DNA of 64,000 nt from Lethocerus indicus (Eukaryota > Arthropoda > Insecta > Hemiptera > Belostomatidae), in the NCBI GenBank assembly GCA_019843655.1, contig JACDQD010000005.1, forward strand, positions 6,723,575 to 6,787,574, in the 5' to 3' direction. The notes under the pieces were generated by a model that was not told the origin of the DNA, ran no database searches, and saw only the letters and a list, made by a program, of their open reading frames with translations. Position numbers and translations under genes: made by a program. Shown piece by piece: positions 5,821 through 49,398 of this stretch (positions are counted from its first letter, which is position 1; every line of letters starts with the position of its first letter).

Positions 5821-5858
5821 TACTAATTCTTGTCCCTGTTTCTTGTTTGCAGGTAAGA
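5821..5858 (+). promoter_or_regulatory. Candidate recursive (ratchet) splice site 1
   Basis: A branch-like TACTAAT (5821-5827) is followed by a pyrimidine-rich tract (TTCTTGTCCCTGTTTCTTG) and TTTGCAG ending at 5852. GTAAGA begins directly at 5853. A strong acceptor and a strong donor therefore meet with no exon between them, which is the known design of recursive splice sites in long introns of flies and vertebrates. It lies on the same strand as the two similar sites near 27.0 and 49.4 kb. The alternative is an ordinary 3' splice site of a short exon that happens to start with GTAAGA. The motif is seen directly; its use in splicing is inference. Confidence 0.6.
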
Positions 5859-5934
5859 GAATTCAAAGTGTTCTTAGTACTGTAAAGGCAGACCCCTTTT
5901 TCCAGACCTGTCAGAGGAGCTCCATTCAATTAAG
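5853..5934 (+). other. Possible recursive-splice exon or short cassette exon
   Basis: This is 82 nt from the acceptor at 5852 to a second possible donor, AAG/GTTTGT, at 5935. Read in the frame that starts GT-AAG-AGA, the whole segment is open and its codons look ordinary (peptide begins KRIQSVLSTVKADPFFQ). It could be the short exon that defines a recursive splice site, or a normal alternatively used coding exon. I recognise no domain. A GAATTC lies 6 nt after the junction, as it also does near site 3. Confidence 0.35.
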
Positions 5935-7944
5935 GTTTGTGCGAATAAACTTACTTCCCGTAATCCTAAAGCTATTTTTACTCTATCTCCAGTATATAAG
6001 GACTTAGTTAAATATTTATTTGAAAATCAAAGTTAGAAATTAGATAGCAAAGTTGGAATTAAAGGGAAATTCGGTCGTGATTAGAAACCGGGTTGGGCCC
6101 TCATCGCTGGACTGCTCTGCGCTCTCACTTCAAATGTTACTTATTCCGAAGTACATTACTTATCCGGTAGAAAATGACTTGTCACTTAGCGGAGATAAAT
6201 CACCCATTGTTAGTTCGAACCTCTTTAGGGTGCACGACGTTGTTATGGCCGGAGTAATGATCTGTTCATGCATATATTGGGTTGGCTCTGGGTCGTATTT
6301 CCGCGGCCATTTTGTGAAAACAGCCCACCGTTGTTGTTTGCGGCCTTTACCGGCCACGCTCTTTGGATTTTGAAGTGAAAAAATATATTAAAAAAATTCT
6401 ATTAATTCCCGAATAATATTCACAATACTCCCCAATTCATGCGAAAACTACGATAATCTTCTTACATAAAAAAAATAAAAATTTCATGCCAAAGCATCGG
6501 CCGTCTAATTTTATGTCCGTACATAGAGTATTATATATTAGTATTTACTCTAAATTGAAATGTTTTCCTTTACAAGCGTTTAATGTAAGTGAAATTTCTC
6601 AATCCTCCATCCGAGTGTTATGAACGAAAATTTGATTTTAATTCAGTGACAATTTTTTCTCAAAAATCACAAAACTGTCCGACTGGCACTTTTAATTATA
6701 AGAAAATAAAGTACCGTAACCGACCCGGTTATTAACTGTTCAGGTTAAATTTCAAAACATATTACACAAGGCTGACTGAGCCTTGTTACTTACCATCTAT
6801 TCCGCTTTACCGTAGTATCGTAGTTTCGCTACATTCCAGTATAACTTTGAATGAATGTTCGTTACTTTCTGAAATCGTCCCTTGTTCCCATATCGTCAGA
6901 TTCCCGAGCGCCAATTACGGTGTATCCTTTTTGGCCCAGTCGACCGCTGTTTGACCTATCGCGGCCACCGTTAAAAGCATTTCCCTGTTTAATTGCTCCT
7001 CTGTTTTCCTACTTACAGTTGCGACCGTAAAAAAAATTGAAGCACTTCCTAATAGCTTATTCGTGTTGTTGGTTTGTTAGTTGGGCGCTATTATGAGTCG
7101 CTTATTTTTCAGTTTCATGCCGGTTTTTGGCACCGACAATCGGTTTTTAAAAATACCCGCCGAGTCTGGAACGACCAGATGATGACCGCGTGCATTTAAG
7201 AAACAAAACATTTAGTCCTAATATTTGTATTGCTTATGCTTTTTATGTTCTTATTTTATTAGTTAAATTAGCCGCAGTTCTTGAAAACTAATCAATGCGC
7301 TTTTTACTGCATTCCTTTCATTATCGGAATTGAATATTATAATGATTCGTGATGATTTTGTCAGCATACAGCCTACGTTGATTATTTAAGCTCCCTATCT
7401 TCCGCGTGTAATCCAACTCCCCCGTTTCTGTGCGGAACCTTGAATGCGCAATGTTTTTTTTTTATCTAAATTTTCGACCTTGGCACAAGCCGGCCGAAAT
7501 TGTTTTATTGCGGTCGTAATTTTTTGTTTCCTTTAAATTGTCCGCCTCTCGTGACGCGTCTTGAACTTTCCTCGCCGCCGGCTCCGCTGCAATTACTCTA
7601 ATTGAAAGTCCGAAGGTTAATGTATCGGTTCTGTTTCCATCTGCGTTTCGATTCGAAATACCTTTCGCGAAAAAAAAATAAATACGGAGTCGCGTTACAG
7701 TATCCGATTTCCTATTTGTTTTTTGTGCGCTGCCAACGGTACCTCTGTTCTATATATATTAATATCAACACGTATTTACCCATCGTGTAACCTAATTATT
7801 CGAATTATTAGCTTTTTTGTGGCCACCGTTTGGGCCTCTAATACAGGAACGTGAAACTAGAATACCCAACATCGTATAATTCTACAGCATATATTGTACT
7901 GCAAAGTCGTTTTAAAAGGCATTAATCTGTGAATGGTTTAGTCT
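5935..7944. other. Non-coding stretch, no gene recognised
   Basis: AT-rich unique sequence. An isolated good acceptor (CTGTTTTCCTACTTACAG, ends 7019) and an isolated minus-strand donor (ATG/GTAAGT at about 6793) have no convincing partners. Confidence 0.55.
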
Positions 7945-8395
7945 TAAACATACAGTTTTTTCAATAATGCTGTTAGTACTAATAACTTTAGACATACCAA
8001 TTCCCACCCAACAGCGGATTCGCTATCTTGGCCTCCACCTCGACAACAATATATTATATTGGATGACAAATTAAGCCAATGTCAACATACCGACAGTGGA
8101 CGAAGTCGCAAAATCCCGGTTCCTGAAGTTCCACTCCCGCCTTTCTCCTCATCCTAATCCACTCGTTCAGTTCCTCTCCTCTCTTACCCATCCATTAAAC
8201 CCCCCGCGTCGGCTTAAACGCCGCTGGCCTAGAGATCTTCTTAGCCCGTAGAATTGCTATACCAAGCCGTAAACTATTTCATGCATTGATAAAAGTGCCG
8301 TCATTGAATGGTTTCTTTTGTCAAGTCATTCAAGTGAGAAACATACACTCAACACTATAATTATGCTATAATTGATTGTACAAATAAAAAAAAAA
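7945..8395 (+). mobile_element. Jockey-type LINE fragment, 3' end, internally deleted
   Basis: Bases 7,945-8,044 encode the reverse transcriptase piece LDIPIPTQQRIRYLGLHLDN, a hallmark of Jockey-clade LINEs. After a 38-bp unrelated insert (8045-8082) the frame resumes as NIPTVDEVAKSRFLKFHSRL, then SPHPNPLV and RRLKRRWPRDLLSP with a stop at 8249-8251. An AT-rich 3' UTR follows, with AATAAA and a 10-A tail ending at 8395. Roughly 90 codons between the two blocks are missing. Most of ORF2 and all of ORF1 are absent, so this is a dead, 5'-truncated copy. It shares the C-terminal block with the copy at 46.2 kb. Confidence 0.85.
8045..8082 (+). repeat. 38-bp filler at the Jockey deletion junction, copy A
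   Basis: Starts AACAATATATTATATTGGAT and ends AAATTAAGCCAATGT. It matches 8589-8626 at 36 of 38 positions in direct orientation and sits exactly where the Jockey coding sequence is interrupted. It has no relation to the missing Jockey codons. Confidence 0.75.
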
Positions 8396-8588
8396 CTAAT
8401 ACCTTTATGGGGTCGGGAATTCTGTCCTTCATAGACAATATTATCCTTAGTTTATATCGATAACTCTCCGATATTCTCGTGAATATAATGAAATTAATAA
8501 CAGGCAAAATCATTGCAATATATATCTGCTAGAGAATAGTGTAATTGCTGAACGGTCCATTTGCACAAATTTCGAGATTATATATTGG

Positions 8589-8626
8589 AACAATGTATTA
8601 TATTGGATGATAAATTAAGCCAATGT
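8589..8626 (+). repeat. 38-bp direct repeat, copy B
   Basis: Matches 8045-8082 with two differences (G for A at 8595, T for C at 8611). It lies 194 bp beyond the Jockey poly-A tail in otherwise unique sequence, so it may be the donor template for the filler inside the element. Confidence 0.75.
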
Positions 8627-8725
8627 TCTGGTTATATCTTCTTCGTTGGCTGCTGCTGCTGCGGTTTGAAATCAACTTCACCGGCCTTAAATTCATTGGA
8701 ACGTGGGGGCACATTAATGAAAGTC

Positions 8726-8731
<6 letters not shown>

Positions 8732-8783
<52 letters not shown>
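8732..8783 (+). repeat. (GA)n microsatellite
   Basis: About 26 GA units followed by degenerate GTGAGA units. GAGA-factor-type motifs are present, but a simple repeat is sufficient explanation. Confidence 0.95.
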
Positions 8784-8786
<3 letters not shown>

Positions 8787-10676
8787 GAGTGAGAGTGAGA
8801 GTGAGAGCGAGCGGGCACCTGGCCGTTGGGTTACTGGCGTCGTTTCTCCCCTTCCTCTCTTCCCGTCCTCAAATATTTAGGGTCCCGCGGGATAGCCCGG
8901 TCCCAGAACGAATTAACCGACGCGTACAAGACACTAAATTCTGCCCCCCAGGTAAATAAATAAAAAAAAATTCAACCCCACCGAGGGCGCGGCTGTGGAA
9001 GGAGGCGAATATTTAAATCCCCGTCACCCTGACGAGGCCCCCCTGGTGTTCGCTGCAAGTTCATTCGGCGCTGAATAAATAAATGCATTTAGCCCCCACC
9101 CCGGTGCTATTAAAGCGGCACGAAGCAGCGGTACTTCTTTTTTCCCCCCAGTGCAGGGCGGAGGGAAAAAACTTTGGGGATGAAACTGGCGGAAATTGCT
9201 GTCGGTTGTATTTTAAAAAGTTATTTTCCGCGTAGTTGGGGAATTGAACTTGGAAAAACGGTCCCGCTTGATTCGTTTAATTCTGTTTATTTTTTAACCT
9301 TCTTCAGTATAAGTATAATTTAACTCCGTCTGCCTCATAGGATATCGATAAAAATGCAGTTACTATTTCTATTTGCTATTCTTGGGCTTATCACTAGGAG
9401 GTTTGTCCAGTCTTTGTTATTAACCGGTATGAATGTTTGCTCTCGAACTATTTTACGCTCGTTTCAAAGTGAAAGTGTAAATACATAATGATTCCTTCTT
9501 GTTTTTTGTTTTTTAATTGGAATCACTATAACTTTGTTTCATGTCACTGTACCAACAGTAGGCCGCCGTTTTAATCGTTTAGAAATAAAACGCCTCTCTT
9601 CCTAAAATACCGGGTTATTATATTCCTCGAGTTCGTACGATTAATTTAGCAGTATATAAGTTTTCATTGTTCGAAACGTCTATTGTCTAGTCTGCGGGTC
9701 GTGGGCGGTGGCAGCTCGGGGCGGATCTAATTAATGGCGGGGAACACTGCACACCGGATATCGTTTAACGTTTCATACCGTCTAATATTTCATATTCGGA
9801 GTACGGTTAATTGCGACAGTCTGCTGTCTGCTCGGACTGATATCTAATTTCTGGCGCCCGCTTTAATTCGGACCGACGTCCAATTTGAATGGGGTTAAAG
9901 GGGGTAGGGGTGAAAGGGGCGGTCGGAGGGAAGTTTTGGTTCCGGATTGTCGTATCCGGAGAGATTTCACGCCCAAGACGTCGGTAATGGACAGCCTGAC
10001 GTCTGCTCCTCGGACATCTCCACTAATAGAATTATGACCCTTGTCCATATATAAATTGGGGAATAACCCCCGCCCCCGCCGCCGCCCCCGGCCCCTCACT
10101 CGCCTTGTGGTAAATCCAGTGCCGCGGGTGCGATAGTCACCTGGGTTGAGTCATGGCCGACCCCTAACTATAATTTATGGGACCGGCCCCCAGACTGGGG
10201 GCCTCGAAATTGCCTGCGCCTTGCTGCGACCGCCGTGCAACATTGATCTTCCCCTGCCGGGCCTATGTAGGTTAGGCAGAGTTCTCTTTCTACAATTTAA
10301 ATGATATATTACTCATATGTCATATTTCTGAAGCCGTGGCGACTTCAGCCCTCTCTCGTCTATCGCGAGGCTTAGCATTTTAACAAAAACAACTATAATA
10401 ACACATACGGCTAGTCTACGTATTGTATTTCCGTTTACTATGTTTCAATCCATTCTTTTATTCAATTTGTTCGACCGGAAAAAGCGATATAGTGAAACAT
10501 CCGTGGTACAGCGACAGACTGAAAGTGGACCGCGATATATGAACAGGAACGAGTGTATATTCAAGCCGCCTGTGTAAAATACGTTCCAAAATTGTAAACT
10601 GTTATCAGGTTTTGGCGGCAGTGCGTTACATTCTGTTTACCTCCCGGAGAAAAACACGGTAATTGTAACCTCGCAC

Positions 10677-10748
10677 TTTACGGGGGTTAACGTATTTTGA
10701 TTACGGATAACGTAATACCCCCGTTTACGGGGGTTAACGGGGGTATTA
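10677..10748. repeat. Compound direct and inverted repeat cluster
   Basis: A 16-bp direct repeat TTTACGGGGGTTAACG occurs at 10677-10692 and 10724-10739. Overlapping it is a 13-bp inverted repeat, TAATACCCCCGTT at 10713-10725 and AACGGGGGTATTA at 10736-10748, with a 10-base loop. GTTAAC and TAACGTA(A/T)T motifs recur inside. It could form a hairpin or be a paired binding-site array. Confidence 0.7.
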
Positions 10749-12556
10749 ATTTTGACCGGTAAAGCAATTATTTCACGATGCCCGATAATTTACCTAGTTT
10801 CAAAACGTTCAAGGCAATTTAACTATTATATGCCCCGGTGATGTCGATTGTTTCAGAAAAAACAGTATATACACATGTACACGCCGTTTCGTATATTAGC
10901 CGACGCCGGGAAACAATTGAACTCGGCGCGCGTTTTCTTTTTATTAACTTCGCAATATCCAAACCGACGGAGTGCGATAAATAACTGTAATTGAACTGTA
11001 TTTCCCGGCCGGCCGATAGTGCCGCCTTCCCGTAGGCCAACAATTAGTCCATAAATCAGGATGCCGGGGCGGAAAGGGCCGTTGAGGGGGGGGGAGGAAT
11101 AGTAGCTAATTCCGTTTTTGCGCCCTTCTGGGGGGTGTCTGCGCCTCCTCCCCCATAAAGGTGGTATTTTTTGCCAACGTAATTTTATCGCCTGCGCGGC
11201 TTCTGCGGGGGGAGGGTTCGACGCCGTTAAAAAATGCCCGGATTTCGAATTTAGATAGCGGCCCTGTTTTATGGAGGCCCGCAGAAGGCGGACACCGCAA
11301 GCGCTACTAAAAACGCTGGAGGCCGAAAAAAACAAAAAAAGAAAAAAGCGGGATCGTTTGTTCCACGGGGTTGTTTAGTGGCCACATCCCCCGTCTGCCC
11401 GGTTCCACACACGGCTTCGTGACGTTGTTGTTTTCTAATTACAGGCCCCCCCCAACGGTTTTTTCGACGAGCCTAGGTTCGCTTTTTTTTTTTTGTTTTC
11501 GGAGGCGCCGGATTTTCGCAGTCGATTTATAAACATTGGGATAGGAAAGTTGTGGGCCCCGTCCGTACGATGGGTTGGTCGTACGAGCGGCTAGGGGAAG
11601 GGGGGTAGGAATTTATGGGACGTTTTAACTCCCCCTTTAACCCATCCCCGCAGGTGGGTTCGGTATAATTAAGCTCCCCACTCCCCCCGCTCTAGCGCAG
11701 CTTTTCTCCTGATCTCCCGTCGTTCTGTTTGCTGGAAAAATAGGCGGGAGCAAAGCTCAGAATTTTTTTCCGTGCTAAAACCACCAAGTCGCCGTACCTG
11801 GAAAACTTATCAAAAGTACGCTTTAATACAGAATTCATTGACAATTCTCAAAAATTATTACGAAGAATAGAGCTTTCGATAGTTTCACGCTGTGAGTAAG
11901 GCAGTGCAGAGTAAACAAAAAGCCCAATTACCAGAAATTAGCAGTGCCGTTGTCATTATAGTAGTGCCGCACATATACCGCAGCTGTACAGAAAAAGTGC
12001 AATAAAAACCCAGCGGAGAGTTAGCGCGAACACTGAAATTGTTTCACTAAAATCGATGATAGTAGATGTCGGGGAATGAAATCCAATTCTGTCGCTGGAA
12101 CCCAGATGTAGATTGCACCAATCTAGTGTCCGCCAATTAAAAGTGACCCTGTGTAAAGGAAATTGGAACACATACACACACAGGAGCGGTGTCGTACTCT
12201 TTGGGCCGCAGCAGCGATAGGCGTGTTGGGAAATAGAAAACATTAGAGACGCCGAAGACTTTAATGGGGCACTGAGATAGAGATAATGACGGCATTTCTA
12301 ATGGGGTAATTGTTCTGTTGGTGGTGGCGGAGGGGGAAGTGATCGGGGACAATATCGGGGTTTCTCCGTTCCCATTTGTAAATTACATTATGGCCGTCGT
12401 GGAACATGCGTGGGCCGCCAGTACCTAATAGTTTAAGAAGTAGCTGGGCAGGGTAAAAAGAGAGTTATGTACAAGAAAAATTAATGTACCATTAACAAAC
12501 TCTAAAAACCATATAAAATACCTTATAAAATTATATTTCTACCGCCGCAGTAATAT

Positions 12557-13000
12557 TTAATAGCTACGCCCACGAAGCTTCCCCCGCTTAATCATAAACC
12601 TTTCTTCGTTCCAACCAAACCCCTGTGTTTGGGCCGAAAACGACACTAATATCTTTGATAAAGGTACAAAATCCTTCGGTAAACCTGTTTTATCCGCAGG
12701 GCCATCGAAGAACAAATGATGGACGGGGAGAAATGGAAAGCGGGATGGTTGAGGCGGTGTAAGCCGATTATGTGTGTATACAGTGCGGAGGTTGACGGGG
12801 AGGGGGACCTGCGTGCAGTACGCCCCTACCCGAGGATAATCCGGCTGCAGATCATCGTCCTTTGACTGCTCTTGGGGTTGGTGGCCGTGGTGGGACATCT
12901 TCGGTGTCCTTACTCCCCTCCGAGGAGGCACAGTGCTCTGATGATCCTCACTTTCATGAGCTTTCAACACTTCACCGGACGCCGATGATCGGGAGCCAGT
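12557..13000 (-). CDS. Possible coding exon on the minus strand
   Basis: A minus-strand frame is open from about 13,000 to 12,557. Its first half is strikingly protein-like, with fragments GEVLKAHESEDHQSTVPPRR, RTPKMSHHGHQPQEQSKDDD and LQPDYPRVGAY: hydrophilic and rich in H, Q, D, E and P, like linker regions of nuclear proteins. A T-tract sits just upstream, but no AG acceptor lies right at its end. GTAGGG at about 12,831 could act as a donor. No family is recognised and chance is not excluded. Confidence 0.22.
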   Translation of the reverse strand, partial: TGSRSSASGEVLKAHESEDHQSTVPPRRGVRTPKMSHHGHQPQEQSKDDDLQPDYPRVGAYCTQVPLPVNLRTVYTHNRLTPPQPSRFPFLPVHHLFFDGPADKTGLPKDFVPLSKILVSFSAQTQGFGWNEERFMIKRGKLRGRSY

Positions 13001-13413
13001 AAAAAAAATTAATTAATTTGACATCAAATATTTAATGAAACCGACACGGAAATAATTGGACAGTTCATTAGTCGCTGGAATTCCAAAGGGTTTAAGTGAT
13101 TTTATCGCTGTTATGCAAATTTCCATCCACGTCCTGTCGCGATACGTAATTACGTTCGCTTTTTTAAGCCGGTTTAATGCAAATGTCAAAACGTGAGCGC
13201 GTTCTGTGTTGCGGTCGCATTAAATTAAAGAATTCACCCCACTGTAATTGATTTCCTTCTTATAAACCGCCGGTTGATAAATAGGATAAGGGTTCCTAAT
13301 TGCAGACAGTGCAGTTAGTCAGTTGGCCAGCATAATCATAAACCTTCCCCCACCACCACCGCAACTAGCACATAATACCTCAATGTTTTGTGTCCGCGTG
13401 TGAGTAGGAATGC

Positions 13414-13432
13414 GAGAGAGAGAGAGAGAGAG
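13414..13432 (+). repeat. (GA)n microsatellite
   Basis: About 9 units. Confidence 0.85.
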
Positions 13433-13767
13433 CTAGATAGGTCTCCGGGCACTACACGAGCGAGATAGAGTATCTCTCTCTATCCCGCAGGACTCTCCAA
13501 CCTCCCCTCCCTCCAGCCTAACCCGAGCATTCCCGGATTTATAGCACCGTTTTACAACCCCCCGCGTTCCCATTGCCCTCCCCCAACCCCCCCGGCGTGT
13601 AAGTCCCTATAATTAAGGCCCGCCCAACCTGCTATATACAATAGTTGCCGGTATAGCTTGCACAGACACACACACACACTGGTAGAGAGCACCGGCCCCC
13701 TGGAGAACATCGGTTCGAGAAACAATGACTCGAACAATAGCCCTTGTCTCAGTGTATGTACGTAGTT

Positions 13768-13788
13768 TGTGTGTGTGTGTGTGTGTGA
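13768..13788 (+). repeat. (TG)n microsatellite
   Basis: About 10 units. Confidence 0.9.
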
Positions 13789-13898
13789 GAGACGAGGATG
13801 AAAGGAGTAAGGGGGGGTTGTCTAAAAGAGGGGGATGCTGATAAGCGGGCGGGGTCTGATGATCCCCCCGAGGATTACTATGTGTTTGTAGCCCTGTT

Positions 13899-13902
<4 letters not shown>

Positions 13903-13964
<62 letters not shown>
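13903..13964. repeat. (TA)n(TG)n compound microsatellite
   Basis: TA run (13903-13945) followed by TG run to 13964. Further AT-rich palindromic sequence (TGTATATATGTACATATATA) continues to about 14,016. Confidence 0.95.
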
Positions 13965-13965
<1 letters not shown>

Positions 13966-14324
13966 ATATTATATAAATAATATATAACTGTATATATGTA
14001 CATATATATATACATATTCGCCTCTCTTATCACTGCTGCCTCAGCAACTAGCTTCTCTGTGTCCCTGGAGAGCAGAGACTGCGAACGCTGCAATATCAAT
14101 TTTGCGAACCGTGAGATAACAAGCGGCAGGTTAGTGGTAATGAATCATCAAAATAACCCAGGAAACTAAACTTGTGTTCACGGACCCGTATTTTCCTAGC
14201 TTATCGAGACCTTCATGCTAGGATGACTTATATTCTACAAAAAAAAAATGTTTCCGTTCAGTCGGTGGAGACTTTTCTAATTTTCGAATATCCCTGAAAA
14301 GTAATGTTACCATATTCATTAATC

Positions 14325-14702
14325 TATTGGGTTGACAACTAAGTAATTGCGGAATTCACCAACAAATGGCGCTGTACATATTTTTAAGTACGTCAACATC
14401 TTTGCACAGATAAGATTCTTTGATATGTTATTATTTGGTCCTTTCTGAAACTGTCAGTATCAAAATGACATTGACCAGTTGTATTGTGTGTGCGTAAAAA
14501 AGGCTAAAACGCGGTGAACCGAAGCGAGCGTTTCCGTCACATTTTGCTTTCTTATTTTCGCAAAGGTGTTACTCTGTGTACGGTGATGAAGCCTTAAAAG
14601 AACGGCGCTGTCAGTACCGCCTACAGAAAGATGTTGTACTTAAAAATATGTACAGCGCCACTTGTTGGTGAATTCCGCAATTACTTAGTTGTCAACCCAA
14701 TA
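14325..14702 (+). mobile_element. Mariner deletion derivative 1, TA-flanked
   Basis: The element spans 14327-14700 (374 bp) between TA dinucleotides (14325-14326 and 14701-14702). The ends start TTGGGTTGACAACTAAGTAA and match as inverted repeats over about 65 bp with one mismatch, extending to about 77 bp with a 2-base gap. Near 14,560-14,630 on the + strand is a relic of the transposase N-terminal helix-turn-helix region (VYGDEALKERRCQY), preceded by a frameshifted HILLSYFRKG-like piece. The sequence then jumps to the 3' inverted repeat, so the DDD catalytic domain is absent. It is non-autonomous and could only be moved by a full mariner elsewhere. Confidence 0.92.
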
Positions 14703-15842
14703 TATTAATATTGTTATATTTTTACTGAAATTTATGAGCGTGTATTGCTTTGAGGGGTCCTCGTCGGTTGTCCAATAATAGGACGGCGATCTCGTCTCCT
14801 CAGTCGGCAGTTTCCGGCCCCTTGATGTGATGTCAACGATCGGAGACCTGACGTTCGATCCCGGTCGGATCACCAACTTTTGCAATAACCCCCCTCCGTA
14901 GGTTCTCGGCAACTCCCTTGCACCGTGGACCCGCCGGGATTGGGGGTAGCGGTGAAAGGGTTGAGGTGGAGGAGGAGGGTAGAAGGAGAAGGAGGGCAGG
15001 GCGAAATGGAGGGACTCGGGAACGAAATTTGTTTGCCGACTTCCGGTCGGAAAAGTGCAGTTGGCGGGGTTGTTATTGGACGCCTGGTCCTGATGGGGGG
15101 CGTTATTGGGGGAATACTAGAAATGCTGGCGGTATAAAACTTTCGAGCGTTGGGCCGAAATTTGGTACGCGGTAAAAAAAAATCTTTCTCAACAACCCCT
15201 ACGCGCTATTTGCGTTTCGGCGGTAACCGCACTGGAGTTCGATGTATATTGAACTAACAATTCGTACTTTGTTTTGCAAGGCCCATTGAATTTGAACCGG
15301 ATCGGATTGTTTTAACTCTTCCGAGTGGCCAAGATATCGGGTTGGCAATTCATTAGGTACTTTCGCGTTTTCCTCCCAATGAAGCATCTTGTCAAATTAT
15401 GTGCTAAAAAAGTCACAAAAACAACCTTTTTACGAATTTTTTTATAATACTAGAAGTCAAACAATATCTTGTTAAATACTGCTGTATAATAAATCATAGT
15501 TGCAATTTCGGATGAAATACCGTTCTGCAGAGAATCCGCGCTATCACGATTCAAAGTATCCGCCAGCCAGGCACAGTTTCGGACCCCTCGAACGATTTAC
15601 GGCCGTCGGGCGTTCGACGTTAGTGGGAAAGTTGAAAACAAAGTTTATTTGCCTTTAAAATTAACCCGGCCAGTGTTGTACTTTCTATTTTTTTTCTCCG
15701 ATTCTGTCGGCCCCGCTTTCATTGAACTCCCAATTTCAGTGTCACTGTTGACCGTTGTCAGGGATTTATTAGCGCTCCGACCTCCCGGGGGTGCTCTTAA
15801 TTACCGAGTTCTTCCACTCTTACCCTTTGTTCTCTGCTTTCC

Positions 15843-15845
<3 letters not shown>

Positions 15846-15899
<54 letters not shown>
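15846..15899. repeat. (TA)n microsatellite
   Basis: About 27 TA units, 83 bp upstream of the exon candidate at 15,983. Confidence 0.95.
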
Positions 15900-15902
<3 letters not shown>

Positions 15903-15982
15903 GCCGATTTTTCAGTTTCTACCCCCATAATGTTTGGCATTCTCTAATACAAATCTTCTGTTACCTTTTGGTTGTTTTTCAG

Positions 15983-16105
15983 ATGAATGTTTAAATGCTT
16001 AGCTATTTGGGCTCTCATCGCCAAATTCTGTCTTTAAACATTCAAGAGTCGTCCGTTACACTAAGTGGAACGTTGTTTCAAATATTTACGGGCTATGTAG
16101 CAGAG
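15983..16105 (+). other. Splice-delimited exon candidate, 123 nt, non-coding
   Basis: The acceptor is strong (TTACCTTTTGGTTGTTTTTCAG ends at 15982, with CTAATAC branch-like sequence upstream) and the donor is strong (CAGAG/GTGAGT at 16106). The 123 nt between them have stop codons in all three frames, so it is not a normal coding exon. It could be an untranslated 5' exon, an exon of a non-coding RNA, or a poison exon. It starts AUGAAUGUUUAA, a three-codon upstream ORF if it is in a leader. Both splice signals are seen; exon use is inferred. Confidence 0.35.
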
Positions 16106-17216
16106 GTGAGTGAAAATAATGGGGCTTGAAGTGTCGGCCGTTCTTTTGTCGGCGGACCTCATTGTTCGTCCAATTGGTGTCGTTCGTTCGGACCTCGCCG
16201 GTTCAAAGGCCCTCCGAGCCCAAATGCCCTTTTACTTTCGGCCGAGTCCAAGGGCGCGGCAATTTCCTCTTCACAATTTCGTCCCTCGGTCAATTTCAAA
16301 ACCATTATTTTTCGTCGCCTCTAGTTGACTGGGCCTTTTCAACTCTCAGTACGAGTGATCGCCAAAATTCATTTTATGGACTTCGGCTTTCGTGTCGTCT
16401 GCAGGACTCCGAAACGAGGCGAACTTTGAATTATTTATTAACCATAATAAACCCGGAATTTTGCCAGTGTTACGCCAGCGGAGACACTACGCCCCCATCA
16501 AGTTTTCCATCTGATAAATAATTATTTGAGTAAAGAGTAGAAAAGGATACATGGACATGGTAGTACTACTCTATATTGCTGGATACTGTTCCTTGATCAC
16601 AGACCATGTACGTTAACGGAGGTAGAAAGTTCCAAATAGGTTTCTTAAAAATGTTCAGAGAGGATTTCATGTAAAGCCGTCGCATAAACCAGCGTTTCTG
16701 TCCCTTACCTCTGTTGGTTATTGGATTTCCATAATCCCCAGTCCGTTTGAACGTATCGCGTCATTTCAAATCAAGGACAATCCACCTTGAGCGGTGGGCT
16801 TTGGGTGGCCGGTGATGTCACCCGTTCCGGCGTCCTTAGCGGATATCTGATCTCACTCCAATAGAGGAGCAGCAGTCCACAACTCGCAGCTTTCTGACCT
16901 TCTGGCGCTTATTTCCAGTCGATAACGTCATACGTCGCGTTCCCCGAATGAAAGGCGGCTTCTGTGGCTACTAACGCCTTGCGTACAAACGGTACACCGG
17001 GCTGTGACGCTCAAGATTACTCAGGAACTTATTATTGTTTCAAATCCTATCGTACCTCTCTAATCTCCGGCGAGATATTCTGCTGCGTGACCTCAAGAGG
17101 ACAACCTAATGAGTCAATGAAAAAATAAAGGTCAACACATCGGTCAATATTGAATTAACCCTCTCCGTAAAAACATGGTTAAATTACAGTTAACCCGAAT
17201 TCATATTTCTTTCAGC

Positions 17217-26850: not shown

Positions 26851-26853
26851 CGA

Positions 26854-38728: not shown

Positions 38729-38731
<3 letters not shown>

Positions 38732-38784: not shown

Positions 38785-38787
<3 letters not shown>

Positions 38788-41700
38788 CCAGGACCCGGAG
38801 TAGATCACCCTTTCTCTCTCTCTCCATCACTCTCTCCTTTTCCGCTTCCTCGACTCTTCACTCCCCGCGGCGTGTCCACTCTCTTCTGTCTCTCTTTCAA
38901 ACAATAATGATCGCCCCCTCCTAGTGACGAAGGTTCCTTCCGGTGCTGGAAGGGGGATAATTGGATTCAGCCTATGACAGACATTAAGAGGGACACGATA
39001 AGTTCATACATAGGTTTTCCTACGTCTATTGGCGTGAAACGTTCTTCTAGGATTTGTGTAAAGCTGTATTTTTCGATTTAACGCTCTTGTAGATAGGCGG
39101 CAATCTCAGCCCCCCACTTCTCTATTCCCCTTTGTGTTCTGCGGGATCTCTCCGGGTTAAATATTCATGACCCGTCGTCGCCGGAGAACCGGGGTACAAC
39201 GCGGAATGTTATTAATTGAAAATAATAACATTTTCAAATGTAGCCCCCCCCCTCTCGGTCCCCGTTGTATGCCGCGCGTTCGTCGCTCCCGAGCGTCAGG
39301 AATAATTGGTTTATACATCGTCATGGGGGGCTGCTTTAAATTTCAGTCACATTTCTGCCTGTAGCACCCCTCCCCCGTACCCTGCCCCTCATTGTGCGGT
39401 GTCGCCCCCCGCCCTCGCCCCGCTCAGCCTCCCGCTAATGAATTGTTCGGGATTGGGCGCGGACAAATTTCGCGAAAATTGGCCGAATTATTTGAGAGGT
39501 GTCGGTGGCCCTCGGGGGCGGGGGGGGGAGCGGAAGGGGGTTTGGCGGGGGCCAAATTAAATTTGCCGTCTCACCGCCTTCCCGACTTCAAACGCCGGCC
39601 ACCGCGTTTGAGCCCTCCCCGGCTCTATCTCTCATTCGAATCCCATACCGTGTTTAATGAATTCGAATTGTTTATCCAATTTGTCGGGCTAATTGCTTTA
39701 ATTTTCTGCATGAGTCGGGACGCCGCTCTAGTGTAATGTATGTTAAATAAAAAAAAAACTCGAAAAAGAAAGAATTAGGGGTTGAATAAAAAATACGTCG
39801 GGGACATTTCAAAGGGAAAGCTGCTGTTTTTTTTTATATGTATATTCCGATGGCCGCCTGATATTGGTTATCTGTGTGTGTGTTTATACTTATGAATACA
39901 TATGTCGAGAACGTAGTCGAGAAGCGACAGTTAATGAACCAGACGCCGGGTAGATAAATAAAGTGAAATGTTGACCAGAAGAAAAAACTGCAAGCTAAAA
40001 CTTGTAAAATTCCGAATTAAATGAACCTTTGGCCTATAGAATTGTGTCTAGAGGCACATTCTGATCGCCAGTACTGAATTAGTTCATATACATACTACCG
40101 AGCTTTGAGGTGAACTTCCGATCATAGTGCCCCAAAAACCTAGAAGTCAATTTTAACTTACTGACTAATAATTTCATTTTAATTTGAACCGAACTTATTT
40201 TGTCTGTGCCTGAGGCATTGAAGGAGATTCAAGGAGAATCAATAACACATTTGTATTAGTAATATTCGAAATTTTCTTGATGTATACTGCCGTTGGCAAG
40301 TTGAAGCAAGTAATAATGATAATAAATCGCTGGATAGATCGAGCGGGTTTTTCGGACGTTCGTTTATCGCATAACATGGAAATCTGTGTGGGACGCACGC
40401 CCGGACGTTGGGCGTCTACCGGGAATAGTCAAGGACCGCGGACGCTGAGTATTTTCCCATTTCTGGATTAGGCCGCGGTGAAGGGGGTGAGTGGGTGGAA
40501 ACTGAGAGAAATTCGGGGGTCCGAACCGAACCCCGGGTCGGTCGCCATGGAGACCCCGGCAGCTCCCCGCATAAGTACAAAGCCCGGTTGGGGCCGTGAA
40601 CGGGCTCGCCAATATTCAGGCCTTCAATTTTATTTTTCAGGCTAAATATTAACGGTAAAAAATAATTACGGTTTAAATCGACTGGAACAGTGTGTCAGAA
40701 TCCGTAACCCATATATATTTAATTATATATAGGGCGAGTTGAATTGTGGAATGTTCGCGGCTTTGTTAATTAGACGCCGGTATAGCCAATTTCGTCCCGA
40801 GGCCGTAATGATTCCTACAAGGGTATAAATATTAATTAACGCCGGGAATGGCTTTGGGCGGTTGTTCATCGTTTGCGGGTCGGCCTCCCCACGTTAATAC
40901 CCCCGGATGGTTATGCAGTCCGGCAAAACGCGCCCTCAACACTGACTATCCACCGCTCGGAAGGGGCTTAGTCCGCCTTTTAGTCGACGTTCTCCTTCTA
41001 ACGATCAGGAAGTTTCCGCTTCATCCCGTTCGTATTTACCGTTTTGTCCGAGTGCTTTCTGATATCTCCCTAGCGGGGACGGGGAAAAAGGTGAGGTAAA
41101 CGAGGGCCCATATATGATGTAAAAAATGTATTATTGACGTTTTTATTTAATAATTAATAAATTTATTCCGTTCCCTAAATTATTTATTTGTATTTAATAC
41201 TTATTAGAAATAAAAAGAAACTCATAGGCGGGGATAAAAGGCCCCAGCTCTCAGTTGCCTACTTTCTCCGATGACATTAGAACCTGTAAAGTGCCAGCGA
41301 AAAGGTCAATATATTCTGCATCCAGACATTTGTAGCGCTATTACAGTCATCAGTCAACAATTTTAGATGAGTTTGATGGTAAACGCCCTCATTCGAATTT
41401 AACGCAGTCTTCTGGACGTATAATCGGTTCTGAAAATATTGGATAATTTTTACGGTCAATTTAAGCTACAAAACTGAAACCTTAACGCACCCCGACGTCC
41501 CGAAAAATCTTTACCCGAACTTTGCGGGAAATGTTCGGGGTGCCGGGGGGGGGCCCAAAAATCCCGCCCGCGTCGGCCTCTAATTGGGCCGGAATAATTT
41601 GCATTTCATTAAGAGTTGCCCTCGGTAGGAAGTGTAATCGAATTACGCCCGGGGTCGAATAGCGTGAGCCCAACTCGACCGACCACTGGGTAACTAGGTG

Positions 41701-42183
41701 GCCGGCCTAGAAATTGAAATAAGTCCCCCGACACTGCGTCCGTTACATTTTGTACGTTACAACAGTACATACAGCACAGGACGGGTGAAGTACGAGCTCC
41801 CCCGTGGCAATAATTATGATTTGAAATTCATCGGAAAGTTCTAATTTTGCAATACAATATCGGTTCTTTGAATTCGGGCCCGATTCGATATGTCCCCACT
41901 ACCCTTTTGGAAATTGTACGATTTAATTTAAAAAGTATATCATGTATATACACATAATTTTAATACATTTTCCAATGTTCCGAGAACTGCGAAATATGTT
42001 ATTTTAAAATTTAATACTCGCACTGTGTTTGACTTGACAAATGGCACTCTGATCAAAAGCAAAAATCAGTTGCAGATTGGCTTTTTAGGAATTGGTCACC
42101 AAATCCTCCGTTTTAATTTGCCATTTTTTTAAACTATAATTTTTTGGTTCAATAATGTTTTTAATAGGCGAAATGAATCCTCT

Positions 42184-42200
42184 CATCCATCCATCCATCC
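42184..42200 (+). repeat. (CATC)n microsatellite
   Basis: Four units. Confidence 0.8.
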
Positions 42201-44337
42201 TCGATTCATACCCTGAATACGAATGGATCTCTCTTTGGAAAATATATATATTCCGGAATTATTATCCCCATGTAAAATACATACTGAGAGTCCTCTCGAT
42301 AAATTCCCCGTAAGTCTCCAGGCATTATAAGAACAAAATCCACAGCACTTTCAGTTATGTCCCGAATACCCGGCTGGTTATTTAAAAATGGGCTGGATTT
42401 TACGGTATCTGGATATAACGGGACCGATTCGTTCCGTCGGACCGAAACCAATCTATTTGGCCGGCATCGACATTCTGATTTATCGGTTCCGCTGGCAACA
42501 ATGGCCGGCCAGCACCTCTCCATTTGTCTCATTTACCGACCTTTAACCTTTCGCCGGCCCTCCGCTCTCTACCGGCTCATTTTATTTAATTGCCAACGAC
42601 TTGTGACGCTGGAACGATTCCAATTTTGCCGGAATTCCAGTTACAGAGGTGTCTCTCCTGTACGCTTCATTGAGCCTCTATCGGTGGACAGGATTGGCCT
42701 TTTATATAACTCGTATTTATTTTTCAATTCATAACTTTGAAATATACCCGGGGGGGGGGGAATTTTTCATCTTTCCTTTTGTTCGTCCCCCGTCCCCTCC
42801 CGCGCGAAATTGTTACTACTCCCCGTATGTAAATCCGGTGAGCAAAGAAAAAAAAATCAGCACTCCTTCCTGAAGGGGGTTAGAGGATACTCTGATGGAC
42901 GAGGGGGGGGGTGGCAGGAAGTAGGGCCGCAAAAGTGGAAACCCGAGGAGCAGGAGCGAAGGCACATAAAAGAGAAGTCGAACACGTCCCGAATGCATTA
43001 CGGGGGCTTTTCCTATTTACATGGCAAAGGAGTATTGCAACCGCCAAGAGGTACACCGCGCCCTATCCGATATTTTAATAGGCGCGAATTTCTCGTCTTC
43101 AACATTTTTATGCGTGGACAATTAAGAGCAGAATATCGGAAATTAATATCGATTTCGAAAATCGGTTACAAATTCTGATCGAATGACAGTTTGGTCCACC
43201 ACCGGGATTCGACCCCCGTAAAAAGGCGAGACATTTAAAGGGGAATTTCAAAATTCGATATTTGTGTATTATAAACTCATGCCTCATAAATTTACGGAAA
43301 TGAAGCCACAATACCTCATCAGTATATTTGAATCAGGACCACAGTCCCTGGTTAAAATTTCGGAGGCGGATCGAATATTGCTTCAATTATAATTGGTAAC
43401 TGAAAATAGACGGACGTTTTGAATTTAACAAGTGCGAGCCGGTTTCGGTTTCGTCACGGATTTATGACCAATTGAAATTAGGACGTGCGCTATCCTAATT
43501 ATTTCCTGGACATTAATTAGGCAATTTTAAATTTAAATTCAATTCGATGGCCCGTATCGAACAAACGAAAATTTATATTTCATATAGGTTATATATAAAT
43601 GTCTATTAATTACCTGTTGTTACCTCTCTGGGATTCGGATTAGCCCGCCGATTTCGGTGCGCATTTGCAAGCTTCACCGGTCCATATTAAACGGCCCTTA
43701 AATCGTAATTAAGCGCGCGGATATGAGTAGAAAGCGCGGAGTAGAATAGCTTTGAAGTTTCAAATAATATGTCCTCACGTGGGTGGGGGGTCGCACTGTG
43801 TGCCCCATTGTATTTTACGGTTTCACGTAATGAAATTGACTGCTTTGCTAAGGATTCGGTGAAACCGCATAAGTTGTGCGGCGGGAGGGAGTCGAGCAAG
43901 GCACGTTCTGCTTTTTAAATTTTTAATTTCTTTTTTTCTTCTAAACCTTGTGCCCACTCTATTCCGGGTGTGTTGTCCTCTCGCAGGGGGATTAAAATAT
44001 TCTATTTATTTCTAAAAATTACAGCGGGGTACGCAAGCGGACAACTGATTTCTATGGTTCTTATGTTCGGGAGAAAATTATGCAGAAAATATTTTCAAGG
44101 AATTACATTGTGAGTATAAGATTGCTGTAGGAAAAATTCAGAAATCAATTGTTCGAATTCCATACTTTTACCGACAATATCATCAATCAGGTTCAGGCAG
44201 ACCTCCTATATCGTGATTGCAATTTACGGGTCATTAGCCGGGGGAATTAACCCAATTACTCGACAATTGGGGGGGGGACTAATAATTTTATGTTAATTTT
44301 AATTCCCGGGGAATTATGTTTTTTTCGCTTATTTCAG

Positions 44338-44582
44338 GGGTTTGGGACGGCAGGAACGCCCGCTCCGTTGCTAATTTCGCAACGCCCGCCGCGGTGAAAA
44401 TTTATGGACGGGGGAGCCCCTCTCTCCCTCCCTCCCTCTCTCTCTCTCTCGCGGCCCCTAAACAGATTATATTTTCATTGGACTGTATATTCAGTATAGT
44501 TGTCTTCCTCCCTGTTAACCGCAGTAGTACAATTTATGGTGTAATTGCGTTCCGTTATGCCCTCCCTGTGGTTTTTGCCTAG
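44338..44582 (+). other. Possible exon after a strong acceptor
   Basis: TTTTTTTCGCTTATTTCAG ends at 44337. One frame stays open from there to TAG at 44580-44582, about 80 codons. It begins VWDGRNARSVANFATPAA and then crosses a CT-rich microsatellite that encodes PSLPPSLSLSL. The microsatellite in the frame and the lack of homology argue against a conserved coding exon. The acceptor itself is good. Confidence 0.18.
44418..44450 (+). repeat. (CCCT)n/(CT)n microsatellite
   Basis: Lies inside the open frame after the acceptor at 44,337. Confidence 0.85.
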
Positions 44583-46199
44583 CTCTAAATTATTCCGTTC
44601 GTTTTCCCGCACGACCACCCGGTCGCCCTTAGATACGGGCTTCGATTGCTGACTAAGCGCTTTATAATATCAATACAACGCGCATTATCCGCAATCCGCA
44701 CAGCCCTGATATCACCGCCTAATTCAAAATATAACGATAATTATTACAGAAAATCGCCCAACGAAGCGTCTGGCGAGCTGCGGAATCGAGCCGGTCGCAA
44801 CTAGAAAATTATCGCGTTCCTATAATTTAGCACGATAATTATTATAGTAGCCTCTTATGAATGTAAAGTATTTTTTGCATTAATTGCTCTAATTTCGGCT
44901 CGAAGTAGCTCCGGTACGCTGAATCCATTCGCGTCTCAAAGGTGCCTGTCGGATCGGGCTGTTCGTTCGCAGGGACGGGCACGAGGTATTTATGAAAACC
45001 GGAGTTGAATAAATAAATTTCGTGGATTTATTTGCGGGCGGAAGTGAAGGAATTTTCAGTTGGGGGGCGGAGGCGGCGGTCACGCTCCATTAACCCCGTT
45101 AAAACCGCCCTCCATCCGGGTCATTTCAGTCTTGTACGTGATCTCTCGCCCGCCTCCTCCATTAGCCCGGATAAAGGTCATTCAGATTAACCGGATAATA
45201 ACCCCCGGCGCGTTGTCTTGACGTTTCTACCGCCCCTCGGCGGTGAAGTGGGGGCGGGGGTTGGGAGGGTTTACGTCGGTCACGCTGATGACCTTTACTG
45301 GAGGTGAGGATGTGTCGTTAAAAAGGCTCCCTCGGTTGCTTTCGCTTTCGGAACGCGGGCAGAATTACTGCCCTGTGACGAACGATCAGGGAATTTTACA
45401 ATTCAAAATGAGCATTAAAATAGATTCATAAATAGCGTTCAAACACTATAACGTTCTAGTTTACTTAGGCCTTGATGTCGACAAAATAATTTGTCGGAGT
45501 TCCATCACTAATCGTATCTTTTGTCCCATTTTGGCTCTACTAGAAGAGAATAAATATATATCATTAGGCAGAAATATTCATAGATTTATTTGAGAGAAAC
45601 AGTTTTGTCGCGGTGTGTAGGGGGTTGCTGGGGGGGGATTGCTCCCGGCGCCGAGTCATCGACTTGGGACAGATGACGGGTTAAAAAGCGGTAGGTGGAG
45701 GGGGAGGGGAGGCGGAAGGAAGAGTAAAAGCGGGCCGAGATAAAGTGGAGGTTGTGAGGGGCAAGAAGAATGACTTGGGAGGAGGAGGTGGAGGAGGAGG
45801 GCAAGTGGAAAACATTTATCCGTGAGTTCTTTTGGGGAAAAAAATGATGTCCGGGTGTAAGATTGCAACGGGAATCGACTTGACACTCTGGGGCACCTCC
45901 TCCCTCTACACAACCCTTATATCCAACCTTTTGTCATCGGTCTTTAACCTCGGACTTATCCTCAAGACGGGGGTGCGGGCGGTTACTACTCCACGTCTCA
46001 AATTGATTCCACACCCAGTAACAACGGAGAATTCTATCCAGCGGTTGGAAAATAAAATAAGTAAAACATAATTGTGCCTTATAGGGATGATTATAGGAAC
46101 TGACGTCCTGTGTGTGAACGCACAAAACATAATCCGACTCATAAGATGACTGGTTGTAATTTATTATGAAATGTGTAATTTATGAGCCGTATCTTTTAA

Positions 46200-46578
46200 G
46201 ACATCGAAATTGACCTTAAGTAACAAACTAACAATATATAAAGCAATACTCAAACCGACATGGACATATGGTATTGAGCTATGGGGTTCCACCGAGACAT
46301 CCGACATCGCTCGCATCCAGAGATTCCAATCAAAAGTCCTTCGCACCATCCTTAATGCCCTGGTATGTTTCTAACCACACAATCCACAATGACCTCAACA
46401 TACCGACAGTGGACGAAGTCGCAAAATCCCGGTTCCTGAAGTTCCACTCCTGCCTTTCTCCTCATCCTAATCCACTCGTTCACCCATCCATTATCCCCAA
46501 CACGAGACAAACGCGAAAAATATACATGTATCAATTGCACCTATAACTGTATAAGTTGATTGCGCAAAATAAAAAAAG
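46200..46578 (+). mobile_element. Jockey-type LINE fragment 2, 3' end, frameshifted
   Basis: Bases 46,200-46,370 encode SKLTLSNKLTIYKAILKPTW, then TYGIELWGSTETSD and RIQRFQSKVLRTIL, the conserved region after the reverse transcriptase of Jockey-clade LINEs. Near 46,358 one base is lost, so the continuation (PWYVSNHTIHNDLNIPTVDE) is in the next frame. The shared block with the 8.1-kb copy continues to about 46,495, then a deletion removes the last codons. The 3' UTR end resembles that of the first copy and ends in an A-rich tail at 46,568-46,578. It is dead. Confidence 0.88.
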
Positions 46579-49355
46579 TTAAAAAGAAAATATCTTTTAA
46601 GAAAAGTATATTTAATTCATTTAACCGCATAATATAATTCGTTCTTACATTTCCCCTCTGAATTATATGCTGGGCCTCCCCCCTATGTATTTCCGGGGTC
46701 GAGAAAATTAATCCAGCCAGTGTAAGGCAGTATGTATCGAGAATAAAATTTGATAAATATTCATCCCCCTTCCCCTCCCCTAAATTTGTCACCGCCGACT
46801 CACCCTCCCACTTTTAATCCGTTATAATTTAGAATTTAATCTGGCGGCTATGGAGACATTAGAGCGGGAATGTATCGGAGGTAATTAGGTTGGCTAGGCT
46901 AACGTTGATACCGGTATTAATTGGTTGGCTTAGGGTCGGCGGCCACCCCGCTGCCCTTCCTGCCTCCACCCCCTCATGCCCCACAGTAAATCATCACCTA
47001 CCGCACTACCAACAGATACGAAGATTATCCCCTGGAATATGGTTGCCGGGGAAAGTGCCGGACTTCTACCGTGGGGGCAATATCATCTCCCGCCCCGTCG
47101 TATTGAGTTCGCCGAAGGGTAACGTTTTCAGATCATTGTAGGGACGCATATAATTGCACACCCTAAGTTTAAAAACAGGACGTATGAAAAATAATTATTA
47201 AAAAAAAATTGCAGGCTTGGCTTTAGCTAGATTTCCGCCATTGTAACTATCATAGTATCAACGTTAGCACTACTGTCACACCCTTACAGTGTCCACCGAC
47301 TGTAAAACGTTCATTTCGCTGTATGAAAATTCGTGCCCCCGTAACGAGCTCTGTGGGGGGTCCATCTCCTCTTCTAATTATGTGCCGCATTCGCCTAATA
47401 ACCCCTTCTCACACAGCCTGGAAGTTGGCGGTTCGCGCGGGGGTTAAAACGGGATATTAAAAGTCGGATTGGCCCCGTAAATATATAAAAAAAAATTACC
47501 CCGCCTCGAGGTGGCGTATATTCTGGTGCGTATTAGGGGGCGCACAGCGTTATTCTGTTACCGTTATCCCCCGCGGCCGGCTCTAATGGGGTTCCCTTGT
47601 TATTTCTTAATTCGATCCGCTTCGTCACCCTCGTGAACTTTATTTACCGTATTATTTTTCATCTTTCTCTCTCACTCTCTTCTCCTCTTTTTTTTCTACT
47701 CCCCACTGTCGCCGTTCCCCCCGACTTCGCAGAATCGTCTGAGAGAACATCCCCCTCTCCACCACCTCGTCCTCCTCCTCCTCCTCCTGTCAAAGGGAGG
47801 TAAATCCCGGGAATTGTCAGACTGCCCGGTATTCGTCTACGTGGCGCCAGTCACAACGCGTGAAATTAACTGGCTAAATTGTTCCGCTGTAGTTTGAAAA
47901 ATGGATTTGCAGTTTGGCACCCTCTACAAAGTTGTTTCCCTTCGGCGTGACTGCAGAGGCGAATTCCGCTCATTAAAATATTATCGAATTAAGTGAGTTT
48001 GTTCCTGAACAGGACTGGAAAAAGGTTATACTTTATTCAATTTGTAATTCGTCTCTTGCGCGCCAGCCCAGATATTAACTACCGGCCGTATGAACCTTCA
48101 TTATTTTATTTCGTATAAAATAAAAAAAATAATTGGAATGAAATTGCAAAATTTATTATACCCGAGGGAGTTTTTGCCATCACTCCGAATTTACAACCGA
48201 GTTTTTCTCTCGTCGTTCCTCGTTTTCTACAAAGCCAATACATTGCGGCTTTTCCACACTCTCGCATAGTGCTGAGCTAGCGCCAGCACTGTCCCGACCG
48301 GCCGGTTGCGCTACTTTATTGGATTTTATTTAACAAGAAAATCCCGAAGGTCATACTCGGGGTGGTTGGGGGGGGGGGTAGGTTTGGGTGGTGGCTGCCC
48401 CCCCATATTTAGATTCATGCCGCAGTGTATGAATGGCAAATCGTTGCCAATGGTTTATTCAGTATCCTTTCATTTCCCGCCGTTACCATTATGGATTTTC
48501 GGCCCTCGGCTCGTTGCAGCGCTGGATTACATGTTTTCAGTAATTCAGTAAGTCCCCGCCCATTTCAGTAAGGACGTCCAGTCAGTCTACTGGGATGATG
48601 ATACGTTTAAAACTTGCCCGAGTTGGATTAGCGCGCTAAGAAAAAACTCCGGAAAATGAGATCGTTCCGGGGTGGGGAGGGGCTTTATTAAAAAAACTCT
48701 AGGGACTAAGTACATTAAGCGTCAAATATTCCGGCTGTATATACTCCTTGACAGGAGTCAAATAAAAAATCAAGCTTAAATATATCGAGGCTATATGTTC
48801 TCGGAAAAAATTTGTGGGTTTATAAAATGACATTGGCTGTATAATTTCAGTTATAAACTATAGCGGTGAATTCCGCACTCTGTCCCCCGGTAACCAAAGG
48901 GATTTTGCATCCCCCCGTACTATAGGGTGTGTAGAATCGCGTGTGAAGGGGGTGGGACGGGGTAAGTGTGGTTAACCGGGGTGAAACCCCGGGGATAATA
49001 GAGGTGCATACTGTATGCAGCTCTCGGCATTGGTGCATCACGCAATTAACAGAGCACAGACACCCCCTTCCTCATCCCCCTACGCACCCCCATTAACCAT
49101 TGCCGCTTGAACGCACAAACGACGAGGGGCCGTTCTATGGGTGGCGGGGGCGGCAGTTCGGGGTGAAAAGTTCACGGAAAAGTGCTGTGTAATAACATTG
49201 AACCAATGATAACTGTTTGTCACCATTTTTTGTGCCCATTCTACGAATGAAAATGTATAAAACTGTCGATTGGAAACATTATTAATTCGAGGATAAATTG
49301 TGTGCATTGTGCAAATTTAATGATATGTACGCTGAATGTTCTACTGATATATTAC
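46579..49355. other. Non-coding stretch, no gene recognised
   Basis: Unique sequence. CAGTAA is repeated three times within 40 bp (about 48,530-48,575), two of them reading as CA/GTAAGT and CA/GTAAGG donor-like sites without partners. Confidence 0.55.
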
Positions 49356-49360
49356 CGTTT

Positions 49361-49398
49361 TTCTAACCATTCCTTGGTTTTTTTTGTTGCAGGTAAGG
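49361..49398 (+). promoter_or_regulatory. Candidate recursive (ratchet) splice site 3
   Basis: TTCTAACC (branch-like, 49361-49368) is followed by CCTTGGTTTTTTTTGTTGCAG ending at 49392, and GTAAGG starts at 49393. This is the clearest of the three sites: branch-like motif, long T tract, CAG, then a near-consensus donor with no gap. The first bases after the junction (GTAAGGAATTCC) resemble those after site 1 (GTAAGAGAATTC). The sequence is seen directly; recursive use is inference from known biology. Confidence 0.65.

What the first reader, a model, noticed from the sequence alone, without database searches (positions are those of the whole stretch)
5821..49398. Three same-strand ratchet (recursive) splice sites at 21-22 kb intervals imply one giant + strand intron
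At 5852/5853, 27022/27023 and 49392/49393 a full 3' splice site (branch-like TNCTAA/TACTAAT, pyrimidine tract, CAG) abuts a good donor (GTAAGA, GTATGT, GTAAGG). The only two AGGTAAG and the one AGGTATG I found on the + strand with a pyrimidine tract are all of this type. They are collinear and nearly evenly spaced (21,170 and 22,370 bp). Recursive splicing of long introns through such sites is established in Drosophila (for example Ubx) and in long vertebrate genes. A host gene spanning the window on the + strand explains the lack of other genes.
Basis: partly seen in the sequence, partly recalled or inferred. Interest (0 to 1): 0.9.

Follow-up and report, generated by a model that had tools for sequence, protein, structure and literature searches.

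The report
Three ratchet splice sites, giant intron
This stretch of DNA, probably from an insect, carries three evenly spaced landing spots at which the cell's splicing machinery most likely removes one giant intron piece by piece, a mechanism already known from fruit flies.

Summary
With an insect-like 3'ss+5'ss matrix they rank 1, 2 and 3 over both strands; simulations give 0.015-0.035 such scores per 64 kb and 0 of 600 reach three. The short motif alone is at chance level. CTAA stands at branch distance in 3 of 3. A second donor follows at 82, 46 and 52 nt, as in Drosophila RS-exons. T exceeds A on + in 55 of 64 blocks. Best explanation: the window lies inside one + strand intron of more than 43.5 kb, removed by recursive splicing through zero-nucleotide exons. 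Transcription, conservation, species and host gene could not be tested; Hymenoptera is a recalled guess. With two of the four matrices one of the three sites drops to rank 4 or 5. Enrichment of such sites in bee, mosquito and beetle large introns is published (PMC2773006), so this is a new member of a known kind.

The parts
5821..5827 (+). Branch-point-like TACTAAT of ratchet site 1 (candidate branch A at 5826)
   Evidence: CTAA at branch distance 3 of 3 against about 7% background
5830..5858 (+). Ratchet point 1: pyrimidine tract, CAG (5850-5852) abutting donor GTAAGA (5853-5858)
5853..5934 (+). Putative cryptic RS-exon 1, 82 nt, closed by donor AAG|GTTTGT at 5935
   Evidence: 12% of window positions have as good a donor in +20..+90
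26997..27000 (+). Branch-point-like CTAA of ratchet site 2
27000..27028 (+). Ratchet point 2: pyrimidine tract, CAG (27020-27022) abutting donor GTATGT (27023-27028)
27023..27068 (+). Putative cryptic RS-exon 2, 46 nt, closed by donor CTA|GTAAGT at 27069
   Evidence: 4.5% of window positions
49363..49367 (+). Branch-point-like CTAAC of ratchet site 3
49370..49398 (+). Ratchet point 3: pyrimidine tract, CAG (49390-49392) abutting donor GTAAGG (49393-49398)
49393..49444 (+). Putative cryptic RS-exon 3, 52 nt, closed by donor GAG|GTCAGT at 49445
   Evidence: 5% of window positions
1..64000 (+). Inferred interior of one + strand intron (both ends probably outside the window)
   Evidence: AT skew -0.065, negative in 55 of 64 1-kb blocks; no Rfam match at gathering score and no tRNA; no Pfam match in the 20 of 68 long ORFs scanned

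Best explanation
The three sites are intronic ratchet points. A + strand transcript crosses the whole window. The upstream exon, outside the window, is spliced to the acceptor at 5852. The GT that follows this junction acts at once as the next donor and is spliced to 27022, then to 49392, then to an exon beyond the window, so that nothing of the window stays in the mRNA. Each acceptor is probably first recognised by exon definition, as a short cryptic exon (82, 46, 52 nt) ending at a second donor, and the donor at the junction then wins. Shown: sequence, position, excess over chance, strand coherence, branch-like motifs, downstream donors. Inferred: transcription, use and order of the sites, a single host gene, insect origin.
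For: Ranks 1-3 of all positions on both strands with the insect-like matrix. 0 of 600 Markov simulations reach three. Within the window, 3 of 49 good + strand acceptors abut a good donor against 5 of 2,884 other AGs (Fisher p = 2.3e-4); on the - strand 0 of 34 against 4 of 3,402 (cut-offs 9.0 and 6.5 were set by me after the sites were known). CTAA at branch distance 3 of 3. Downstream donors at +82, +46, +52; per-site background 0.12, 0.045, 0.05, combined p about 0.012 (own Fisher arithmetic; weaker with the range +20..+120: 0.164, 0.062, 0.07). T over A on + in 55 of 64 blocks. 600 bp around each site have no second copy in the window. The anatomy matches Drosophila: juxtaposed SA|SD, RS-exon of about 50 nt with a downstream donor, two evenly spaced RPs in the ~50 kb kuz intron (PMC8605326, passages); recursive segments that follow a recursive site enriched for strong 5'ss (PMC6110457, passages); RP-sites 4-fold (bee), 8-fold (beetle) and 22-fold (fly) more frequent in large introns than on their complementary strands (PMC2773006, section 6 read).
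Against: No RNA, conservation or flanking-exon evidence could be had: the genome search did not complete. Splice matrices are recalled, not trained on this species. With a human-like matrix site 27023 falls to rank 4 behind + 11654; with a T-heavy matrix - 33296 and - 34329 outrank 5853. Site 2's RS-exon donor (GTAAGT) looks at least as good as its junction donor (GTATGT) in the six intronic bases, so skipping is not certain there. Poly(A)-signal words are only marginally depleted on + (AATAAA 70 against 74 expected, ATTAAA 50 against 56; on - 84 against 82 and 75 against 69). All chances are post hoc, since the window was chosen for these sites.
Confidence: 0.85

Rival explanations
1. The sites are the starts of real alternative microexons that happen to begin with GT, as in Drosophila Ubx m1/m2, so the 46-82 nt pieces are sometimes included in mRNA.
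For: A donor follows at 82, 46 and 52 nt. Expressed RS-exons exist and Ubx m1 and m2 are 51 nt (PMC8605326 passages). Site 2's second donor is the full consensus GTAAGT.
Against: All three lengths are 1 mod 3 and the two GTAAG sites read TAA in one frame at once, as expected of cryptic, excluded RS-exons. With 9-nt scores the downstream donors (5.8, 7.6, 7.5) are weaker than the junction donors (11.1, 10.5, 11.0), though the three exon bases counted there are the intron's own CAG and would be replaced by the upstream exon's end after the first step.
Confidence: 0.07
2. Chance: three AG|GT junctions with pyrimidine tracts in intergenic or intronic DNA, not used.
For: The short motif alone is at chance frequency. 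Bee large introns show only a 4-fold excess over the complementary strand (PMC2773006), so by that ratio a single site in a bee would be false about a quarter of the time. The window was selected for these sites.
Against: 0 of 600 Markov simulations and 0 of 300 block shuffles at 80% pyrimidine (2 of 300 at 70% and 75%) give three + strand sites. CTAA 3 of 3.
Confidence: 0.06
3. The sites are real but belong to two or more separate + strand transcripts (for example long non-coding RNAs), or serve as decoy zero-length exons rather than for stepwise removal of one intron.
For: No exon of a common host gene was found. PMC2773006 (passages) cites a rat tropomyosin zero-length exon thought not to serve recursive splicing of a long intron.
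Against: The strand bias keeps its sign in 29 of 32 2-kb bins, the three exceptions being scattered. No tRNA or RNA family was found in the window, and no Pfam match in the 20 of 68 long ORFs scanned.
Confidence: 0.05

Closest known systems
Drosophila intronic ratchet points / zero-nucleotide exons (Ubx, kuz, Bx and others; PMC8605326 and PMC6110457, passages; Burnette 2005 and Duff 2015 seen only as citations, not held)
   Same: Juxtaposed acceptor and donor around AG|GT, long intron, even spacing, a further donor downstream defining an RS-exon of about 50 nt, out-of-frame cryptic exons.
   Different: Probably not a fly (CpG o/e 1.17; the reading as Hymenoptera is recalled). Use in RNA not shown.
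Predicted RP-sites in honey bee, mosquito and beetle large introns (PMC2773006, section 6 and passages)
   Same: Same sequence type, more frequent on the sense strand of introns over 50 kb (bee 0.484 against 0.122 per 100 kb).
   Different: Here 3 per 64 kb, denser than that paper's bee or fly mean; but thresholds differ and this window was chosen for its sites.
Vertebrate recursive splicing with RS-exons (Sibley 2015, recalled and seen as a citation)
   Same: Exon-definition type layout with a second donor downstream (recalled).
   Different: Vertebrates show little or no sense-strand enrichment of RP-sites (ratio 1.5 or less, PMC2773006).

Membership tests
Insect ratchet point (recursive splice site) | Full 3'ss (pyrimidine tract, YAG) abutting a consensus 5'ss (GTRWG) with no exon between | tested here: met
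   3 of 3 sites
Insect ratchet point (recursive splice site) | Branch-point sequence at normal distance | tested here: met
   CTAA in -40..-15 at 3 of 3; the stricter CTAA[CT] at 2 of 3
Insect ratchet point (recursive splice site) | Excess over chance and over the opposite strand | tested here: met
   3 on + against 0.015-0.035 expected per strand or strand pair; the best - strand sites score 16.2 against 18.2-19.9. Not met for every matrix: T-heavy puts two - sites above 5853
Insect ratchet point (recursive splice site) | Downstream donor defining a short RS-exon | tested here: met
   +82, +46, +52; moderate support, combined p about 0.012 by own arithmetic
Insect ratchet point (recursive splice site) | Lies within a long intron of a transcribed gene on the same strand | tested here: inconclusive
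   Strand skew and absence of hits agree; no exons or RNA
Insect ratchet point (recursive splice site) | Deep conservation of the junction in relatives | not testable with these tools
   No insect genome collection is offered; the genome search did not complete
Insect ratchet point (recursive splice site) | Saw-tooth intronic RNA signal, recursive junction or lariat reads | not testable with these tools
   No RNA data

The most novel reading that the evidence does not exclude
An insect outside the flies (perhaps a bee, wasp or ant) removes a giant intron in roughly equal 21-22 kb steps through exon-defined ratchet points whose cryptic exons share a recognition element (TTTCCAGACC occurs only twice in the window, both strands searched, inside putative RS-exons 1 and 2), so that spacing and exon-definition elements are part of a conserved insect recursive-splicing code.
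Probability: 0.12. Interest if true: 0.5.

Novelty: new member of a known kind. Interest (0 to 1): 0.36.

Why it matters
It is a clean example, read from raw sequence, that ratchet points mark a long intron and its strand in an insect that is probably not a fly, and it gives exact junctions to test. In the listings of my searches, I saw computational enrichment in bee, beetle and mosquito (PMC2773006) but no RNA-mapped ratchet point in a non-fly insect; of the papers listed I opened five in part. The library lacks most subscription papers, so this is not proof of absence.

Tried and rejected
Motif counts alone do not support the finding and were not used. Viral-collection scans for 17-19 nt around each junction gave 0, 3 and 0 hits; the three hits share 18-20 nt with the window around 27023, and the 20 rows printed (list cut there) show no match longer than 25 nt, so I took them as chance. 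A scan for ordinary internal exons (acceptor at least 8.5, donor at least 8, open frame, 24-600 nt) found, among 57 + and 44 - acceptors, one + strand acceptor (first exon base 2930) with two donors (2994, 3030) and none on -; I ran no chance estimate for it and claim nothing. Other tandem junctions (+ 2930, + 11654, - 33296, - 34329) score below the three in most matrices, not all. Poly(A)-signal depletion was too weak to use. Pfam on 20 of the 68 stop-to-stop ORFs of at least 100 aa: no match at E up to 0.1; the other 48, and shorter frames, were not scanned. PMC13105047 (outline and abstract) describes a sequence feature around first introns and was not applied.

Full report
What was checked. 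The three junctions were read directly: TACTAAT...CAG|GTAAGA at 5852/5853, TTCTAAAC...CAG|GTATGT at 27022/27023, TTTCTAACC...CAG|GTAAGG at 49392/49393.

Against chance. The short motif is not enriched: CAGGTRWG 5 matches against 3.5 expected in shuffles, YAGGTRWGW 3 against 4.3, YAGGTAAG 2 against 2.5. What sets the sites apart is the joint signal. With a 29-position 3'ss+5'ss matrix (insect-like frequencies, recalled) the three score 19.9, 19.7 and 18.2 and are ranks 1, 2 and 3 on both strands; next come two - strand positions at 16.2. Simulated sequence reached 18.2 on average 0.03 (order-1) or 0.025 (order-3) times per 64 kb on both strands together, and 0 of 200 in each set had three. A local order-2 model, with a slightly different insect-like matrix and cut-off 18.1, gave 0.015 on + and 0.035 on -, and 0 of 200 had three on +. 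A rule without a matrix (YAG|GTRWG, at least 80% pyrimidine) finds these three on + and none on -; 0 of 300 block shuffles gave three on +, and at 70% or 75% pyrimidine 2 of 300 did. Inside the window itself, 3 of 49 good acceptors on + abut a good donor against 5 of 2,884 other AGs (p = 2.3e-4), and 0 of 34 against 4 of 3,402 on - (cut-offs set by me after the sites were known). The result is not independent of the matrix: of the four matrices, two keep the three on top, a human-like one puts + 11654 third and 27023 fourth, and a T-heavy one puts two - strand sites above 5853. The window reached me because of these sites, so the chances are post hoc.

Further anatomy. CTAA lies 15-40 nt upstream of all three (background about 7%; the stricter CTAA[CT] in 2 of 3). 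Donors as good within +20..+90 occur at 12%, 4.5% and 5% of window positions; the three together have p about 0.012 by my Fisher arithmetic. This is the layout reported for Drosophila, where the ratchet point encloses a cryptic RS-exon of about 50 nt flanked by a downstream donor, and the junction donor normally wins (PMC8605326, passages); recursive segments after a recursive site are enriched in strong 5'ss (PMC6110457, passages). The three putative RS-exons are all 1 mod 3 in length, in line with 'generally out of frame'. The spacing of 21,170 and 22,370 bp is even at a chance of about 0.03 (own arithmetic); kuz intron 3 of about 50 kb has two evenly spaced ratchet points.

Surroundings. 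T exceeds A on the + strand (AT skew -0.065; 55 of 64 1-kb blocks; 58 of 64 after masking purine or pyrimidine runs of 12 or more). A slight T over A excess on the sense strand is reported for the 5' region of Drosophila short introns, together with a bigger excess of C over G, which I do not see here (GC skew -0.005 with standard error 0.011; PMC10946897, passages). I read the bias as modest support for + strand transcription. ARAGORN found no tRNA, Rfam no match at gathering scores, and Pfam no match in the 20 of 68 long ORFs given to it. BLAST of 600 bp around each site against the window (E up to 0.01, dust on) finds no second copy beyond two 17-18 nt local inverted matches. So the sites do not come from a repeat present elsewhere in the window.

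Origin. CpG observed/expected is 1.17 and the window carries two short mariner-like elements. Both would fit Hymenoptera, but that reading is recalled and no call tested it. The genome search tool did not complete, so host gene, species and conservation stay open.

Literature and novelty. PMC2773006 (section 6 read; passages) counted RP-sites in introns over 50 kb: bee 0.484 per 100 kb against 0.122 on the complement, beetle 0.807 against 0.101, mosquito 1.029 against 0, fly 2.196 against 0.101, vertebrates at ratios of 0.9 to 1.5. So ratchet-type sites in non-fly insects were predicted already. Searches for recursive splicing with Hymenoptera, honey bee, Tribolium, Apis, mosquito and ants (listings, plus passages of two of the papers) showed me no RNA-mapped example. 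Verdict: a real feature, most likely three ratchet points of one giant + strand intron, a new member of a known kind.

Noticed in passing
14327-14700 and 37866-38257: Two short elements (374 and 392 bp) with the same 25-nt mariner-like terminal inverted repeat, TTGGGTTGACAACTAAGTAATTGCG, at all four ends; the first has arms of 74 nt, 97% complementary, and the two elements match each other in part directly and in part inverted. Too short for a transposase; the name mariner is recalled.
   Followed up: partly
8082-8169 and 46395-46482: 88-nt direct repeat, 99% identical, 38.3 kb apart. Its translation resembles the end of a non-LTR reverse transcriptase (recalled); the ORF at 46232-46546 has no Pfam match.
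   Followed up: partly
5899-5908 and 27041-27050: TTTCCAGACC occurs twice in the window (both strands searched), both times inside a putative RS-exon (0.16 expected; 2 of 100 shuffles reach two; a 10-mer shared by any pair in 2.1% of 3,000 random triples of 70 nt). RS-exon 3 lacks it. Could be a shared exonic enhancer or chance; the motif was picked after it was seen.
   Followed up: partly
2930-2993: A possible small + strand exon: TTTCATCAG|GTTTGT with strong donor CGG|GTGAGT at 2994, open in one frame. Also the sixth-best tandem junction. No chance estimate was run.
   Followed up: partly
33296 and 34329 (- strand): Two tandem acceptor/donor-like junctions on the - strand about 1 kb apart, ranks 4 and 5 with the insect-like matrices, above 5853 with the T-heavy one; A-rich in front, probably chance.
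   Followed up: no
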